Positions 39,701-58,741 of a stretch of DNA of 64,000 bases are shown here, in pieces. Position 1 is the first letter of the stretch. Each line of letters begins with the position of its first letter. Source of the stretch: Brucella pseudogrignonensis (GTDB lineage Bacteria > Pseudomonadota > Alphaproteobacteria > Rhizobiales > Rhizobiaceae); assembly GCF_002252525.1 (NCBI RefSeq), contig NZ_NNRM01000048.1:156042-220041 (forward strand), written 5' to 3'. A program made the translations under genes and the position numbers. Under the pieces are notes generated by a model. That model did no database searches. It was not told where the DNA came from and saw only the letters and a list, made by a program, of their open reading frames with translations.

Positions 39701-40768
39701 ATGTCCGTCCAGCGCGCAAGTTTCTACATTCTTCTAGCTCTGGTCACTATAGCCTTCGCATGGCTGCTCATTCCATATTATTCAGCTGTTCTTTGGGGCG
39801 TAATCCTCGCACTTATCTTTTTTCCAGTGCAGCAACGCCTTGTTCGACTGTTGCGTGGTCGCAGGAACATCGCAGCTTTTCTGTCGGTACTTATGTGCAT
39901 CTGCCTTGTCATCATCCCGACATTGCTGATTTTTGGATCGCTCGTTCAAGAAGGAAATTCCGTCTATCAGCGGCTGAGTACGCGTGAATTTGACCTAAAC
40001 AGCTATATTACGCGCATATTAGCGGCGCTTCCCGATACACTGGAAGAATGGATGGTTCGCTTTGAGCTTGGCACTTTCGCAGAATGGCGCACGCGTATTA
40101 CCGGCGGTATTCTGCAAGGCAGTCAGATTTTTGCGAGCCGCCTAGTAAGTTTCGGTCAAAACACGCTGCAGTTTTTCATCAGCTTTGGCATTATGATCTA
40201 CCTGCTGTTTTTCCTGTTCCGCGATGGAGCGGAACTGGGTGAGAAAATCCGTCAGGCAATCCCTCTCAGCGAAGATTACAAGAACCAGTTTGTCGAGAAG
40301 TTTGCAGCCGTCATTCGTGCCACCGTCAAAGGTAACATTATTATCGCACTCGTTCAGGGAACGATTGGCGGTGTCACGTTTTGGCTTCTTGGTATCGAGG
40401 CCGCATTGCTGTGGGGTGTGATGATGACGATCTTCTCACTGCTCCCAGTTGTCGGGGCTTCCCTTGTGTGGGGACCTGCAGCCATATGGTTTGCCGTCAA
40501 CGGTATGTGGGTCCAGACAATCATCTTGATACTGGTTGGTGTTTTGATAATTGGCCTGATCGATAATCTCTTGCGTCCGCCATTGGTTGGCAAAGGCACG
40601 CGTATGCCCGATTTTGTCGTGCTTATCTCGACGATCGGCGGCATTTCCCTGGTAGGGATCAATGGATTTGTCGTCGGACCGATGATTGCAGCAATGTTCA
40701 TTGCTGCCTGGTCGCTTCTTGCTCAAGAGCAGAACACGGAAATCCCGCCTCAAACAGGCTCTGATTAA
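39701..40768 (+). CDS. AI-2E/PerM family membrane transporter
   Basis: A 355-aa protein with about eight transmembrane segments. It has the family N-terminus (two helices, then an extracytoplasmic region at about 80-150) and C-terminal blocks FSLLPVVGASLVWGPAAIWFAV, DNLLRPPLVGKGTRMPDFVVLISTIGGI and GFVVGPMIAA. Members include the AI-2 exporter TqsA and sodium/proton antiporters, so the family name does not define the substrate. It is a single gene. Downstream, on the other strand, is the small RNA described below. Confidence 0.88.
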   Translation: MSVQRASFYILLALVTIAFAWLLIPYYSAVLWGVILALIFFPVQQRLVRLLRGRRNIAAFLSVLMCICLVIIPTLLIFGSLVQEGNSVYQRLSTREFDLNSYITRILAALPDTLEEWMVRFELGTFAEWRTRITGGILQGSQIFASRLVSFGQNTLQFFISFGIMIYLLFFLFRDGAELGEKIRQAIPLSEDYKNQFVEKFAAVIRATVKGNIIIALVQGTIGGVTFWLLGIEAALLWGVMMTIFSLLPVVGASLVWGPAAIWFAVNGMWVQTIILILVGVLIIGLIDNLLRPPLVGKGTRMPDFVVLISTIGGISLVGINGFVVGPMIAAMFIAAWSLLAQEQNTEIPPQTGSD

Positions 40769-40790
40769 AAACTCACACAGTGCTGGGCTT

Positions 40791-40914
40791 AAAAGCAAGA
40801 ACGCCCGCTGCACTGGGAGGAGGAGTGTGCAGCGGGCTGATCTGAAAAGCGCGACTGGGAGGAGGAGTGCCGCGCTTCGGGTTCAGTTTCTGGGAGGAGG
40901 AGTGAAACTGAACA
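40791..40914 (-). ncRNA. Three-hairpin small RNA with CCUCCUCCC loops (alpha-r14 / cuckoo RNA type)
   Basis: On the minus strand three consecutive stem-loops each present the loop ACUCCUCCUCCCA. The stems are GTTCAGTTTC (40881-40890) with its complement at 40904-40913 (10 bp); AAGCGCG (40847-40853) with 40871-40877 (7 bp); and GCCCGCTGCAC (40803-40813) with 40827-40837 (11 bp). The last stem is followed by GTTCTTGCTTTT, a plausible terminator. A promoter ends just before the first stem. The anti-Shine-Dalgarno loop motif in tandem hairpins is known from the alphaproteobacterial alpha-r14 and cuckoo RNAs. Predicted length is about 124 nt. The target set is unknown. Confidence 0.82.
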
Positions 40915-40920
40915 AACCCA

Positions 40921-40949
40921 AAATAGGTGCGGGGCTTGCCACTTACAAG
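40921..40949 (-). promoter_or_regulatory. Promoter of the CCUCCUCCC small RNA
   Basis: Read on the minus strand: -35 CTTGTA (40944-40949), 17-base spacer, -10 CTATTT (40921-40926). The start would be at about 40913-40915, exactly at the first stem-loop. The hexamers match the alphaproteobacterial CTTGAC/CTATAT pattern. Confidence 0.65.
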
Positions 40950-40988
40950 AGGCGATGCTGCAATGCTGTTATGCATTTACGAATAGCT

Positions 40989-41030
40989 AAAAAAAGAAAC
41001 CGCCCCGCAGCGATATACGCGCTGGGGCGG
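40989..41030 (-). terminator. Strong minus-strand terminator without an assigned gene
   Basis: CCGCCCC (41000-41006) pairs with GGGGCGG (41024-41030), extended inward by AGCG/CGCT with a two-base bulge. On the minus strand it is followed by TTTCTTTTTTT. No coding sequence lies upstream on that strand, so it should end an unknown transcript from the bhuA leader region, or insulate the small RNA promoter. Confidence 0.75.
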
Positions 41031-41362
41031 CTCTATCCTCCTCCAAGTGGAGCCGACAATAACGGCACATAATCAAAAAGCAACCCCTTAATATCTAATC
41101 TCAATTTTCAGAAATTACTGAAATTATTGCATGTAAAACCAGCATTACTAAATAGCCATCAAGCTGTAACAACAGCCTCTTCATCAATCGTCATGTAATA
41201 AGAAATTTTTTAATAACTCTGTAAAAAATTACACGCCTAAGGCTCACGTCTTAACTTTAATTTGTCGTTAAGGTGTTAAATTCTTTAATCGATTAAAGCG
41301 CTGCAATGCTTCACATTTCACAACCGTACGCATAGCCATGGCCGCCAACATATAATTAAAGT
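41031..41362. other. AT-rich intergenic region before bhuA
   Basis: No protein gene is seen. It contains the perfect 16-bp palindrome CTTTAATCGATTAAAG at 41283-41298 and, on the minus strand, a GGAGGAGGA stretch (41036-41044) just before the terminator. Confidence 0.5.
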
Positions 41363-41390
41363 TGACTCATTAAATCAGGATTAATATAGC
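41362..41390 (+). promoter_or_regulatory. bhuA promoter with overlapping iron-responsive box
   Basis: The -35 hexamer TTGACT (41362-41367), a 17-base spacer and TATAGC (41385-41390) form a good sigma-70 promoter. The TGA-N9-TCA box (41363-41377) that matches the RirA iron-responsive operator covers the -35 element. Confidence 0.65.
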
Positions 41391-41403
41391 CTCCCAATTA
41401 ATA

Positions 41404-41418
41404 TGAGTCTTTTTATCA
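41404..41418. promoter_or_regulatory. Second iron-responsive (IRO) box upstream of bhuA
   Basis: TGA-GTCTTTTTA-TCA, within TTAATATGAGTCTTTTTATC. Almost the same extended sequence (TTAATATGAGTGTTTACATC) lies upstream of the second TonB receptor at 49546-49565. Confidence 0.65.
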
Positions 41419-41458
41419 TCTTAATGACATGACGGTGAAAGCCAATATGGGGGTTGCA

Positions 41459-43591
41459 ATGAAAATGAAGTCGAAGCGCGGCGGTTATTTGTTGGAAACA
41501 ACGGTTTTAAGCGGGGCAATTGGTTTGAGTTTGTTGGCAGCGATGCCTGCTTTTGGACAAAATCTGGGACAAAACGCGACAGCTCAGAATCAGAAGACGA
41601 CGGAAGAAGCCCAGCCAGCTCAAAAGAAAGAGCAAGCTCTTCAGCTAGACACGATCACTATTTCGCCGACAATCCAGAACCAGGCTGCGATTGATGCAAT
41701 GGCCTCGACCAGTGTCATTACACAACAGCAACTCGATCGTATTCAGGCAACAACACCGGCCGACCTTTTCCGTTCGACACCGGGCGTACACGCATCTCTG
41801 AATGGCGATGATCCTGCAACATCCATTAATATTCGTGGCCTTCAGGAATATGGCCGGGTTGCGGTAACGATAGATGGTGCTCGTCAGGACTATTGGCGCG
41901 TTGGGCATGGCTCGGGTTCATTCTATATCGACCCTGAAATGCTAAAGCAGGTAACGGTCATTCGAGGACCGGTATCCAATGCCTATGGTTCTGGTGGCAT
42001 TGGCGGTCTCGTTGCTTTCGAAACCAAGGATGCAGGCGATTTCCTGCGCGATGATGAAACATGGGCGCTCAGCGAAAAGCTACGCTATGAAAGCAACGGC
42101 AATGGCTGGATGACCAGCACCGTCGGCGCCTATCGCTTCAACCCGAATTTCGATGTCATCGGCAATATCAACTATCGCGACAGTGACGCCTATAAGAATG
42201 GTGACGGCGATGTCGTGCGCTGGACTGGCGAACGCGTTGTCAGCGGTCTTGGCAAGATCACCATCCGTCCTGCAGATGGGCATGAAATAAAGCTCGGTTT
42301 CCAGCGTCAAAAATATAATGACATCATGACCGGCAGCAGTGGTTCCACTTCGAGCACGCTATCGCGCTATAATGCCGAAACCATCGTCAGCACTTACACG
42401 GGTAATTACACTTATAAGCCGGACGACAACCCATTCTGGGATCTGTCGGTCAACGCCTATTACAGTGATACGGATAACGATCAATATCAGGTCTGGCCGA
42501 AAGCCAATATCGGCAAGACGCGTTATTATGATGTCTCGACGGCAGGTTTCCGCGCTTACAACAGCTCACGTTTTGAAACCGGCGCTATGAGCCATACGCT
42601 CACCTATGGCGTGGATTACTATAAGATGCGCGGTGAATCCGACACCGACAACTTCGGTAATGGTGAACAGCAGGCCTATGGCGGCGTTATTCAGTGGCAG
42701 GGCGATTATCAAAAGTGGCTCGAACTGATTGGCGCTCTGCGTTATGACGGATACCGCCTCGATGGCACGACCAAAGCGACGAATGTTCTGCCCTCGGAAG
42801 AGGTCAACGTCGACGGCAATCGCGTTTCACCACGCTTCAGCGTCGGTGTAACACCATGGGACGGCGTTCAGTTTTACGGTCTTTATTCCCAAGGTTATCG
42901 CGTTCCTCATATGCAGGATATGTTTAGGCAGAACGGCGCACATGGCTCGGGATATGAACCAAATCTGCTTCTCAAGCCCGAAGTCGCAACCTCTTACGAA
43001 TTTGGCGTAAACTTGCGCCAAGACGGTATTCTGGATGCAGGCGATCAGGTTCGTGCCAAGCTCAATCTGTTCCACACAGACGTCAAGAACTACATCAACA
43101 CTGTGAAAACCGGGAACGTAACAACATCTGAAAACGTCGGCGCTGCACGCTTGCAGGGTATTGAGCTGGAAGGCACTTATGACAATTGGTGGGGCTATGT
43201 GAACCTGGCTGCTTCTTACACGGATGCCGAAATGAAAGACGGCGTTTACAAAGGAGAAAGCCTGAGCAACACGCCGCTCAACAATTTCAGTGCAACGCTT
43301 GGCCTCAAGGCATTTGAAGAGAAGCTCGTTTATGGTGTCGAATATCAGAGCGTCGGCAAGGTCAATCGCGCACTGACAACAGGTGGCGTCAAGGTTTACC
43401 CGCGTGTCGATCTCGTTAATGCCTTTGCCAACTGGCAAGTCACCGACAATGTGAAGCTCGACTTCGGCGTCGATAACCTCTTCAACAAAGCCTATACCGA
43501 CGCCCAGACTGGTTGGGCCACGAGTACGGATATTGAGCAGGCCAAGGGTCGAACCTTCAAGATCGCTATCACAGGTCGCATTGGCGGCTGA
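41459..43591 (+). CDS. bhuA: TonB-dependent haem receptor
   Basis: A 710-aa outer-membrane receptor. A signal peptide (cleavage near residue 34, AFGQ) is followed by a plug domain with SINIRGLQEYGRVAVTIDGARQDYWRVGHG and VIRGPVSNAYGSGGIGG, then a 22-strand barrel ending VDNLFNKAYTDA and a terminal RIGG. The FRAP-like YRVPHMQDMF and NPNL-like YEPNLLLKPEVA boxes with an intervening histidine mark it as a haem receptor of the BhuA/HmuR group. A GGGGG ribosome site supports ATG 41459 over 41429. Two IRO boxes upstream predict induction in low iron. Confidence 0.9.
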   Translation: MKMKSKRGGYLLETTVLSGAIGLSLLAAMPAFGQNLGQNATAQNQKTTEEAQPAQKKEQALQLDTITISPTIQNQAAIDAMASTSVITQQQLDRIQATTPADLFRSTPGVHASLNGDDPATSINIRGLQEYGRVAVTIDGARQDYWRVGHGSGSFYIDPEMLKQVTVIRGPVSNAYGSGGIGGLVAFETKDAGDFLRDDETWALSEKLRYESNGNGWMTSTVGAYRFNPNFDVIGNINYRDSDAYKNGDGDVVRWTGERVVSGLGKITIRPADGHEIKLGFQRQKYNDIMTGSSGSTSSTLSRYNAETIVSTYTGNYTYKPDDNPFWDLSVNAYYSDTDNDQYQVWPKANIGKTRYYDVSTAGFRAYNSSRFETGAMSHTLTYGVDYYKMRGESDTDNFGNGEQQAYGGVIQWQGDYQKWLELIGALRYDGYRLDGTTKATNVLPSEEVNVDGNRVSPRFSVGVTPWDGVQFYGLYSQGYRVPHMQDMFRQNGAHGSGYEPNLLLKPEVATSYEFGVNLRQDGILDAGDQVRAKLNLFHTDVKNYINTVKTGNVTTSENVGAARLQGIELEGTYDNWWGYVNLAASYTDAEMKDGVYKGESLSNTPLNNFSATLGLKAFEEKLVYGVEYQSVGKVNRALTTGGVKVYPRVDLVNAFANWQVTDNVKLDFGVDNLFNKAYTDAQTGWATSTDIEQAKGRTFKIAITGRIGG

Positions 43592-43723
43592 TCATGGGGC
43601 AGGCGAGGCTAAAAATTGCTTCGTCTGCCAATCACTCATCTGAACGATAAAAGTTTTCCTGAATACTCAAGTTTATGATAGTGAGATTCCTGAAAACATA
43701 GATTGAGAAAAGCCGTGTCCAAG

Positions 43724-44812
43724 ATGTCATCAGAACTGACCTCCAAGCTGACAAGCCATTCCCATATTCGCCTTCTGAAAGGCGAAGCCTATCTGCCGAA
43801 CATCATTGATCGGCTCAACTCTTATCAGGCACAGTATAACAGTCACGAAAGCCGCCACGAGTTCACTTATGAATTCGGTCGGATCGAGATTGATGCCGCT
43901 GATAGCGGCTATCGCGTTTCCTTGCTTGCAGACGAAGACATCGGTCTGCATCGCCTTAAAGATCTCGCAGCCGTTGCCATCAAACTCTACACCAAGGAAG
44001 AAGCGCCGGAGATCGTTTGGCAAGGCGACCGTGCTGGTGAACAGGTTTTGCCGCAGTTCCGGTTGATGCGGGTAATTTCTACCAGTCTGTTGACGCCGCA
44101 TATGCTGCGCGTGCGGCTAGCTGGTGAGGACTTGAAACGCTTTTCTCTCTTTGGGGCGATGCATATTCGTCTACTGCTTCCCACAGAAGAAGTGCCACAG
44201 CCGATCTGGCCCATCATGGGGCCAAATGGTTTGCCATTCTGGCCTGATGAACAACGCAGACCCGCTTCGCGCGCTTATACAATCCGGGCTCTTGATATTG
44301 ACGCTGGGTGGCTTGAAATCGACTTCTATCTCCATGAAATAGAAGGCCTGGCCTGCAAATGGGCGAAAGGCGCGAAGATTGGCGATACGGTTGGTCTGAT
44401 GGGGCCAGTCGGACGTCCATTGCGTCGTGCAAGCCGCTATCTCATGGGCGCAGATGCGACTGGCTTGCCTGCTATTGGTCGTATGCTTGAAGAGTTTTCC
44501 TCAGACGTAACAGGTCGCGTCATCATTGCCGTCGATAGCGAAAAAGACGTTCAGCCTCTGCAGCACCCAAAGGGCATTTCCGTCGATTGGGTTATCGATG
44601 CGGATCAAAAGCGTGCAGGCGAAACGCTGACGCAAATTTTGTGCGAAGCTGAGTGGCCCGAAGGACCAGACAGTTTTGGCTGGTTTGCGGGTGAGGCTGA
44701 TCAGGCTAAGATTGTTCGCCAGCATTGGCGTCAGACGCTGGGTAAAAGCCGCGAGGAAACGCTCGTCGCTGGTTACTGGCACAAGGATGCGGTTGGTTTT
44801 ATGGCTGGGTAG
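43724..44812 (+). CDS. Siderophore-interacting protein (ViuB-like) with N-terminal DUF2218 domain
   Basis: A 362-aa cytoplasmic flavin-dependent ferric reductase-like protein. Residues about 10-95 form a DUF2218 domain (ARTS..YEFGRIEIDAADSGYRVSLLADE type). The rest is the ViuB fold with the FAD motif RAYTIR near residue 183, LMGPVGRP, MGADATGLPAIGRMLEE and the C-terminal WFAGEA segment. These proteins release iron from siderophores; in this position it may also serve haem-derived iron. Start codon is uncertain: ATG 43724, GTG 43715 and TTG 43703 are in frame. It begins 132 bases after bhuA. Confidence 0.85.
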   Translation: MSSELTSKLTSHSHIRLLKGEAYLPNIIDRLNSYQAQYNSHESRHEFTYEFGRIEIDAADSGYRVSLLADEDIGLHRLKDLAAVAIKLYTKEEAPEIVWQGDRAGEQVLPQFRLMRVISTSLLTPHMLRVRLAGEDLKRFSLFGAMHIRLLLPTEEVPQPIWPIMGPNGLPFWPDEQRRPASRAYTIRALDIDAGWLEIDFYLHEIEGLACKWAKGAKIGDTVGLMGPVGRPLRRASRYLMGADATGLPAIGRMLEEFSSDVTGRVIIAVDSEKDVQPLQHPKGISVDWVIDADQKRAGETLTQILCEAEWPEGPDSFGWFAGEADQAKIVRQHWRQTLGKSREETLVAGYWHKDAVGFMAG

Positions 44813-58365: not shown

Positions 58366-58593
58366 TTTTCCCTCCCTTTTACCAACAGTTTACCATACCA
58401 GGCGGATAAAAGAAAAACGCGTAATGCGACGGCTTGTTCCGCGCATGTATAAAGACAGTTCTTTTCGTCTTGGAGACGCTCTTTAAACCGGAGCAACTTT
58501 GCGCGTTAAATTGTTAGAATAAAATTCCATCACAGCCGAGTTACAAGCATTCAAACACTATTGCCAGGACGCAGGAGTTTGAGTAGAAGTAGC
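58366..58593. other. Intergenic region, probable divergent promoters
   Basis: It lies between the micro-protein gene (minus) and the metA riboswitch (plus). No gene or repeat is evident; the promoters of both should be here. Confidence 0.45.
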
Positions 58594-58687
58594 GTCACAT
58601 CAAGAGTTGGGGCGACGCCCAACGCCAACCTGCCTTTCCGGGCAAGGTGGTACTTCCTAAAATGGAAGGATGTGGCCAACCGGCAAA
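58594..58687 (+). promoter_or_regulatory. SAM-I/SAM-IV-like riboswitch in the metA leader
   Basis: The leader folds into a four-way junction. P1 is GTCACATC (58594-58601) with GATGTGGC (58669-58676). P2 is GTTGGG (58606-58611) with CCCAAC (58618-58623). P3 is CCTGCC (58629-58634) with GGCAAGG (58641-58647). P4 is CTTCC (58653-58657) with GGAAG (58664-58668). ATCAAGAG after P1, CAACC before P3 and AGGTGGTACTTCC after P3 parallel the SAM-I core. The P3 loop TTTCCG can pair with CGGCAAA (58681-58687) beyond P1, as in the SAM-IV pseudoknot. Position before metA fits SAM-controlled methionine synthesis. Confidence 0.72.
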
Positions 58688-58741
58688 TATACGGATCAAG
58701 CCACACGCGTCCGCTCTGACATAACGAAGGACTGACGCGAC

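What the first reader, a model, noticed from the sequence alone, without database searches (positions are those of the whole stretch)
40791..40949. Compact three-hairpin anti-Shine-Dalgarno small RNA
Three successive minus-strand stem-loops carry the same 13-base loop with CCUCCUCCC, although their stems differ completely in sequence. The stems are perfect or near-perfect, so loop conservation is not due to simple duplication. A 17-spaced promoter ends exactly at the first hairpin and the last hairpin has a T-rich tail, giving a self-contained gene of about 124 nt. The loop motif is known from alphaproteobacterial alpha-r14/cuckoo RNAs. Which mRNAs it silences here, and why three copies of the motif are kept, is open.
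Basis: partly seen in the sequence, partly recalled or inferred. Interest (0 to 1): 0.75.

Follow-up and report, generated by a model that had tools for sequence, protein, structure and literature searches.

The report
Ribosome-site-blocking RNA beside possible antagonist RNA
The three-hairpin sequence belongs to a known family of small bacterial RNAs that switch genes off by covering the ribosome's landing site, and beside it lies what looks like a second, undescribed small RNA that may mop it up under the control of a respiration regulator.

Summary
Observation confirmed. Window 40798-40917 (-) matches Rfam RF02344 (ar14) at 81.4 bits (cut-off 58.8): three hairpins, identical 13-nt anti-Shine-Dalgarno (aSD) loops, unrelated stems kept by compensatory changes. 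The family, its three motifs and their redundancy are published (NfeR1, Sinorhizobium meliloti), so the RNA itself is a new member of a known kind. The host is of the Ochrobactrum/Brucella group; its genome has seven copies.

The unexpected part lies just upstream on the same strand (41123-40989): a conserved gene-like unit of about 61 nt, here called X, with palindrome, fixed-spacing promoter blocks, CACTTGGAGGAG start and terminator. Of 48 X matches in 35 genomes of the genus, 47 sit directly upstream of an ar14 match. Its purine core can pair with ar14 loops. The palindrome otherwise occurs almost only before a MarR-type gene, which in this genome heads cydDC-cydAB, and equals the footprinted CydE operator at 17 of 18 positions (PMC6096048).

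Best reading: a repressor RNA paired with a cytochrome-bd-linked antagonist RNA. Expression, regulation and sponging are untested.

The parts
40797..40914 (-). ar14 small RNA (Rfam hit 40798-40917), three hairpins with aSD loops
   Evidence: RF02344 81.4 bits; fold; covariation in 28 orthologues
40891..40903 (-). aSD loop 1, ACUCCUCCUCCCA
   Evidence: sequence; all 13 positions invariant in 28 orthologues
40856..40868 (-). aSD loop 2, same 13-mer
   Evidence: sequence; all 13 positions invariant, one row with an inserted A
40814..40826 (-). aSD loop 3, same 13-mer
   Evidence: sequence; 10 of 13 positions invariant, the other three at least 90%
40921..40949 (-). promoter of ar14, CTTGTA-N17-CTATTT
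   Evidence: by eye and the alignment; not found by the E. coli-type scan
40955..40975 (-). TGCATAACAGCATTGCAGCAT box between X and ar14, resembling the published LsrB site TGCA-N6-GCAT (here N5)
   Evidence: mean identity 0.88 over 28 loci; LsrB site from PMC10746234
40989..41049 (-). X: predicted second small RNA, about 61 nt
   Evidence: conservation profile, alignment, 29 of 35 genomes by DNA search, 30 of 35 by model
41038..41049 (-). X seed CACTTGGAGGAG, complementary in its core to the ar14 loops
   Evidence: in 28 of 29 X loci (L079 reads GACTTGGAGGAG); duplex -18.9 kcal/mol, 5 of 500 shuffles as good
40989..41030 (-). intrinsic terminator of X
   Evidence: sequence and alignment; terminator scan
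41056..41083 (-). putative promoter of X, TTGCTT-N16-TATTGT
   Evidence: conserved blocks 0.98 and 0.97 around a 13-base spacer at 0.55; not found by the E. coli-type scan
41106..41123 (.). palindrome TTTCAGTAATTTCTGAAA, CydE-type operator
   Evidence: 17 of 18 positions as in the footprint of PMC6096048
39701..40768 (+). AI-2E family transporter gene, convergent neighbour
   Evidence: Pfam PF01594

Best explanation
The finding is an alpha-r14 (ar14) trans-acting small RNA. Each of three 13-nt hairpin loops presents CUCCUCCC, which covers GGGAGGAG-type Shine-Dalgarno sequences and blocks translation, chiefly of nutrient-uptake mRNAs; this step is shown for NfeR1 of S. meliloti and inferred here. 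Directly upstream on the same strand lies a second small-RNA gene, X, with its own operator, promoter, 12-nt seed at the inferred 5' end, and terminator. X's seed imitates a Shine-Dalgarno sequence and pairs with the loops of ar14, and probably of AbcR-like RNAs. X is switched by a MarR-type regulator of the CydE kind that also heads the cytochrome bd operon, so aSD repression is relieved, or shifted, when the cell changes to bd respiration. The sign of that control is open. My confidence by step: ar14 membership 0.97; X is a transcribed small-RNA gene 0.85; X belongs to the CydE-type regulon 0.8; X acts by pairing with aSD small RNAs 0.45. The figure below is for the whole chain.
For: RF02344 over cut-off; 99.5% of 868 cells paired, 8 of 31 pairs with double changes, 59 such cells against 21.8 in shuffles. 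X: alternating conservation of operator, promoter blocks, seed and terminator; 47 of 48 X matches directly upstream of an ar14 match, among them all 20 that were not used to build the model (against 5, 13, 82). Seed pairing: -18.9, -18.0 and -15.2 kcal/mol for the three own X copies, 5, 23 and 7 of 500 shuffles as good; ar14 loops 0.999 unpaired. Operator: in 33 of 35 genomes, control 0 in 35; in each of these 33 one site stands about 26 nt before the MarR-type gene, followed in the own genome by cydD, cydC, cydA, cydB. Published CydE footprint agrees at 17 of 18 positions. Precedent: CrfA sponges SisA-D in Caulobacter (PMC12559287, passages).
Against: No expression data. The core of X may be hidden: 0.04 unpaired for the window copy with upstream bases included, 0.19 if the RNA starts at CAC and 0.77 with the U tail held free. 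Three of 18 X loci (L174, L204, L209) do not pair better than shuffles. X fits one AbcR loop about as well (-18.3) and the 16S 3' end at -14.8. The X hairpin shows no compensatory change: 0 of 18 pairs. On ar14 itself one measure is not above shuffles: further pair types 20 against 20.9. The operator lies 57-74 nt upstream of the inferred start, not over the promoter. X is kept in L040 and G041 without an ar14 beside it, and six genomes keep ar14 but lack X by DNA search. Neither promoter was found by the scan.
Confidence: 0.4

Rival explanations
1. Only ar14 matters here. X is a conserved terminator or leader whose purine tract pairs with its own U tract, without a partner in trans.
For: The consensus fold pairs the purine tract with the U tail; low predicted openness; three X copies without loop complementarity above shuffles.
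Against: A U tract needs A's, not an invariant CACTTGGAGGA; X has its own promoter-like blocks and operator; the GGAGG-type core persists in paralogues whose surroundings differ.
Confidence: 0.25
2. X is a small regulatory RNA with targets other than ar14, for example AbcR RNAs, mRNAs or the ribosome's 16S tail.
For: X pairs with one of three AbcR loops at -18.3 kcal/mol and with the recalled 16S 3' end at -14.8. CACTT of the seed is invariant but not explained by the shared ar14 loop. G041 has X with no adjacent ar14.
Against: The tie of X to ar14 loci, 47 of 48; G041 still has four ar14 copies elsewhere.
Confidence: 0.3
3. The locus works on the plus strand: read-through from the AI-2E gene makes an antisense RNA with GGGAGGAGGAG loops.
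For: The transporter gene ends at 40768 and converges on ar14; no plus-strand terminator was found in 40760-41430.
Against: Plus-strand fold much weaker; 48 G-U cells pair only on the minus strand; the U tail is on the minus strand.
Confidence: 0.03

Closest known systems
NfeR1 (Smr14C2, SmelC397) of S. meliloti, alpha-r14 family, Rfam RF02344
   Same: Three hairpins, the same aSD motif in each loop, variable stems, stand-alone gene (PMC10746234; PMC7143759)
   Different: NfeR1 is driven by LsrB and NtrC; here another promoter context with X upstream. By its TTTGCATAACT-type box the stand-alone own copy L001 may be nearer to NfeR1; orthology was not tested.
CcsR1-4 / cuckoo RNAs of Rhodobacter (RF02791)
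   Same: aSD loops; a DUF1127 gene upstream at three other own copies, as in the CIN1 loci (PMC10253847, passages)
   Different: Model score 27.6 of 65.3 bits at the window; no DUF1127 gene before the window copy.
AbcR1/2 (ar15, RF02345)
   Same: aSD loop CUCCUCCC, ABC-transporter targets shared with NfeR1 (PMC8844928, passages); three copies in the own genome
   Different: Other fold and family; the window locus does not match it.
CrfA, sponge of the alpha-R8 RNAs SisA-D in Caulobacter
   Same: An independently transcribed G/A-rich RNA that binds the aSD stretch of a family of sibling RNAs (PMC12559287, passages)
   Different: Other target family, induced by carbon starvation. X is much shorter by prediction and lies beside its presumed target. 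Sequence kinship was not tested.
CydE and CioR, GbsR-type repressors of cytochrome bd
   Same: Regulator gene beside cytochrome bd genes with the palindrome in its own promoter (PMC6096048, PMC11837568, passages)
   Different: No small RNA was mentioned in the passages I read.

Membership tests
ar14 (RF02344) | Covariance score over the curated cut-off | tested here: met
   81.4 against 58.8 bits, full length
ar14 (RF02344) | Three hairpins with the same unpaired CCUCCUCCC motif and variable stems | tested here: met
ar14 (RF02344) | Sigma-70-type promoter of its own | tested here: inconclusive
   CTTGTA-N17-CTATTT by eye; scan found none
ar14 (RF02344) | Expressed, represses mRNAs through redundant aSD loops | not testable with these tools
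   needs an experiment
CcsR1 (RF02791) | Score over cut-off | tested here: not met
   27.6 of 65.3 bits
CcsR1 (RF02791) | DUF1127 gene directly upstream | tested here: not met
   none before the window copy, L005
Sponge RNA (CrfA-like in action), for X | Small-RNA gene with promoter and terminator | tested here: inconclusive
   conservation profile supports it; promoter scan negative; no transcript data
Sponge RNA (CrfA-like in action), for X | Complementary to the functional site of the target RNA | tested here: met
   9 contiguous pairs for the window copy, -18.9 kcal/mol
Sponge RNA (CrfA-like in action), for X | Pairing region accessible | tested here: inconclusive
   0.04 to 0.77 unpaired for the window copy, by assumed ends
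Sponge RNA (CrfA-like in action), for X | Lowers the level or activity of its target | not testable with these tools
   needs an experiment
CydE-type regulon, for X | Operator like the footprinted site, and the regulator gene in the genome | tested here: met
   17 of 18 positions; MarR-type gene before cydDC-cydAB
CydE-type regulon, for X | The protein binds the site before X and changes its transcription | not testable with these tools
   needs an experiment

The most novel reading that the evidence does not exclude
A genus-wide two-RNA switch. Upstream-linked ar14 copies travel with their own antagonist, an RNA of about 61 nt whose 5' end imitates a Shine-Dalgarno sequence. The window's pair is wired to the cytochrome bd regulator (CydE type), so a change of terminal oxidase would release the whole aSD regulon (ar14 and AbcR) of nutrient-uptake genes at once. 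It would be the first sponge reported for the alpha-r14 family and the first small RNA in a CydE-type regulon, as far as the paper searches show.
Probability: 0.4. Interest if true: 0.75.

Novelty: new variant of a known kind. Interest (0 to 1): 0.5.

Why it matters
The ar14 RNA alone adds one more copy to a known family. The neighbouring unit offers a concrete, testable answer to how multi-copy aSD RNAs, which could hit many mRNAs, are turned off again. It also suggests that the choice of terminal oxidase is coupled to nutrient uptake through RNA. And it gives the cytochrome bd regulator of this genus a predicted operator and a regulon of two.

Tried and rejected
CcsR1 as the family: below its cut-off. 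Plus-strand function: weaker fold and G-U evidence. X as part of a coding gene: I saw no start codon fitting the GGAGG in the window sequence (by eye). X as a known RNA: the only matches at E <= 1 in 40760-41430 are ar14, CcsR1 (both on ar14) and a weak SNORD57 at 41357-41424. Sigma-54 and EcfG promoters for X were considered by eye and dropped (motifs recalled). CACTTGGAGGAG occurs exactly once in the own genome; with one mismatch there are 11 places in all, two of them ar14 copies, against 14 for the reversed control. The C40 palindrome (L108) has another spacer and was not followed.

Targets: GGGAGGAG-N3-9-ATG has 27 places in the own genome, control 4, one of them an ar14 copy. 22 have an ORF of at least 80 aa. 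20 were searched in Pfam, all with a match; L254 and L248 in NCBIfam, L254 with matches below cut-off only, L248 with none. Five are periplasmic binding proteins; a dicarboxylate symporter, an MFS transporter, a PTS EIIC, GutM and CtaG/Cox11 are also there. No background rate was computed, so the list is compatible with, but does not prove, an uptake regulon.

R1 over 297 genomes of the order, the own included, gave the own genome and one weak match, G119 at 31.8 bits (stricter filters); I took G119 for chance on reading its sequence. Paper PMC4615179 is not held and was not read; PMC3927594 was read in passages. A search for ar14, sRNA and Brucella together found no paper.

Full report
WHAT WAS CLAIMED AND WHAT IS THERE. 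All of it is in the sequence at the stated place. The minus strand folds into these three hairpins (-52.4 kcal/mol, z -8.08, 0 of 200 shuffles as good); the plus strand folds less well (z -3.24). The Rfam scan of the window gives RF02344 (ar14) over its full length, 81.4 bits against a cut-off of 58.8. CcsR1 matches below its cut-off (27.6 of 65.3). The E. coli-type promoter scan found nothing in the region.

CONSERVATION OF THE RNA. In 28 orthologous loci (alignment A2; L075 was left out because no ar14 lies within 420 nt) the hairpins stay paired in 99.5% of 868 cells. Eight of 31 pairs have a change on both sides (shuffles 5.4 on average, 10 of 500 reach 8). There are 59 such cells against 21.8 in shuffles and at most 11 in slid controls. 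The number of further pair types, 20, is not above shuffles (20.9). Loops 1 and 2 are invariant at all 13 positions and loop 3 at 10 of 13, while stems change. Rows are related, so cells are not independent events.

COPIES. The host genome (5.53 Mb, 53 contigs) has seven ar14 copies over the cut-off. Of 40 genomes in the relatives search, the own included, 32 have a match at E <= 0.001 and 25 one over the cut-off; each of the 23 congeners there has 3 to 8 matches, and 11 of 11 further congeners have matches. Loci of the adjacent AI-2E gene place the host in the Ochrobactrum/Brucella group: ten named loci at 80-90% identity, among them Ochrobactrum chromiisoli and Brucella thiophenivorans at 89%. 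Nine of these ten have ar14 beside the gene, L040 has not; of eight other AI-2E loci searched (18 of 30 in all) none has it over the cut-off. I sorted the 65 over-cut-off ar14 loci of 12 genomes, the own and 11 of 23 congeners. 29 follow a DUF1127-like ORF on the same strand (the three own ones match Pfam DUF1127), as in the published CIN1 loci. By eye, 12 are stand-alone with a TTTGCATAACT-type box, one per genome; 21 follow a short terminator-bearing unit, here X; 3 (L175, L184, L215) fit none. The own genome has 3, 1 and 3 of these kinds; the window copy is of the X kind.

THE NEIGHBOUR X. Aligning the window with the ten AI-2E-linked loci showed a second conserved island upstream of ar14. 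It is present in the window and seven loci, even in L040 where ar14 is missing, and absent from the three Falsochrobactrum loci (by eye). A DNA search finds it in 29 of 35 genomes of the genus, the own included. Mean column identity over 28 loci (L080 left out for its insertion) alternates: palindrome 0.96, spacer 0.67, GGTTGCTTT 0.98, 13-base spacer 0.55, GTTATTGT 0.97, six bases 0.52, CACTTGGAGGAG 1.00 after rounding (one row differs), nine bases 0.72, terminator 0.93, against 0.51 in the upstream flank. This is the pattern of an operator, a promoter with a free but length-fixed spacer, a start site, a seed and a terminator. The predicted RNA is 41049-40989, about 61 nt; its start is inferred. 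No Rfam family matches X at E <= 1. Its own hairpin is too invariant to show covariation (0 of 18 pairs). A model search of 35 genomes gave 48 matches in 30. Compared by hand, 47 of the 48 lie directly upstream of an ar14 match on the same strand, 51 to 124 nt away in all but one (203 nt, G016); the exception is G041, which has four ar14 matches elsewhere. Model R1 was built from 28 of these loci, which match by construction; the other 20 were not in it, and all 20 are next to an ar14. In the order, 297 genomes gave only the own genome and one weak match, so X looks confined to the genus at that sensitivity.

DOES X PAIR WITH AR14? Before the terminator the three own X copies read GGAGGAGGA (window), CTGGGAGGA (C38) and GGGAGGA (C48): 9, 9 and 7 contiguous Watson-Crick partners of the ar14 loop, at -18.9, -18.0 and -15.2 kcal/mol, with 5, 23 and 7 of 500 shuffles as good. 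Of 18 X loci scored (three of 21 were not, the script having stopped), 15 have 26 or fewer of 500 shuffles as good and three (L174, L204, L209) do not. Many of these loci are orthologues, not independent. The ar14 loops are open (0.999 unpaired). The X core is not clearly open: for the window copy 0.04 unpaired with upstream bases included, 0.19 if the RNA starts at CAC, 0.77 with its U tail held free; over 28 loci the last two average 0.52 and 0.86. X also fits one of three AbcR loops (-18.3) and, less well, the 16S 3' end as I recall it (-14.8).

WHO CONTROLS X? TTTCAG-N6-CTGAAA occurs at three places in the own genome, none for the reversed control: before X, with another spacer at C40, and before a 194-aa MarR-type gene at C43 (Pfam MarR_2). 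That it is GbsR-type is my reading; the only NCBIfam support is a sub-cut-off match to CudC. In the genus TTTCAGTANTTNNTGAAA is found in 33 of 35 genomes, control 0 in all 35. In each of these 33 one site stands about 26 nt before that gene: own L110 and 13 of the 29 new loci, and 19 of 20 further fetched sites (in L147 only residues 77-186 aligned). Fifteen of those 29 loci hold X; by position 28 genomes have the site before X, and G020's differs by one base. Two sites, L114 and L162, are at neither place. In the own genome the gene is followed by cydD, cydC, cydA and cydB (CydA below its models' cut-offs, the other three over theirs). The GbsR-type regulator CydE of Alishewanella protects TATTTCAGAAATTTCTGAAAGTTCA in its own promoter (PMC6096048, passages): 17 of 18 palindrome positions agree. 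I found that paper after the motif had been defined here. The operator before X lies 57-74 nt upstream of the inferred start, so activation is as possible as repression; published CydE and CioR are repressors. Of the six genomes without X by DNA search, all keep ar14 and four keep the site before the MarR-type gene.

MECHANISM. Shown here by comparison: sequence, structure, covariation, linkage, operator. Shown elsewhere for a family member: NfeR1 acts through three redundant aSD loops, silences two periplasmic-binding-protein mRNAs and ntrBC, and has predicted targets mostly in ABC transport (PMC10746234; PMC7143759; PMC8844928; passages only). Inferred: the window copy does the same; X antagonises it, as CrfA does SisA-D in Caulobacter (PMC12559287); the cytochrome bd regulator sets X. 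The own-genome target list is compatible with an uptake regulon but has no background test.

NOVELTY. The ar14 RNA is a new member of a known family. I saw no report of X, of an alpha-r14 sponge or of a small RNA under a CydE-type regulator in the listings; these cover open-licence PMC papers only, several lists were capped, and one key paper was not held. Taking the pair as one system, I rate it a new variant of a known kind.

Noticed in passing
window 41429-43591 (+) and 43703-44812 (+): A TonB-dependent haem/haemoglobin receptor-type gene (TIGR01785, 445.7 bits) and a siderophore-interacting-protein gene lie on the far side of X; X sits in the receptor gene's upstream region, read the other way.
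   Followed up: partly
window 58592-58700 (+): SAM-I/IV riboswitch aptamer, 60.2 bits. A copy also lies near ar14 in Falsochrobactrum loci L043 and L044.
   Followed up: no
X seed, window 41049-41045: CACTT, the first five bases of the seed, is nearly invariant but is not part of the complement to the shared ar14 loop; with one mismatch it extends the fit to CUCCUCCCAGUG of hairpin 3 (by eye).
   Followed up: partly
L081, L084, L085, L088-L090, L092, L094: In several congeners two X-ar14 units stand back to back, X next to X, with the second X much diverged and in some loci without loop complementarity.
   Followed up: partly
L003, L008, L172, L179 and similar: Some DUF1127-linked ar14 copies have a fourth hairpin with CCTCCTCCC just upstream.
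   Followed up: no
own genome C49:247374, C28:14271, C42:54368: Three AbcR-like ar15 RNAs in the own genome.
   Followed up: partly
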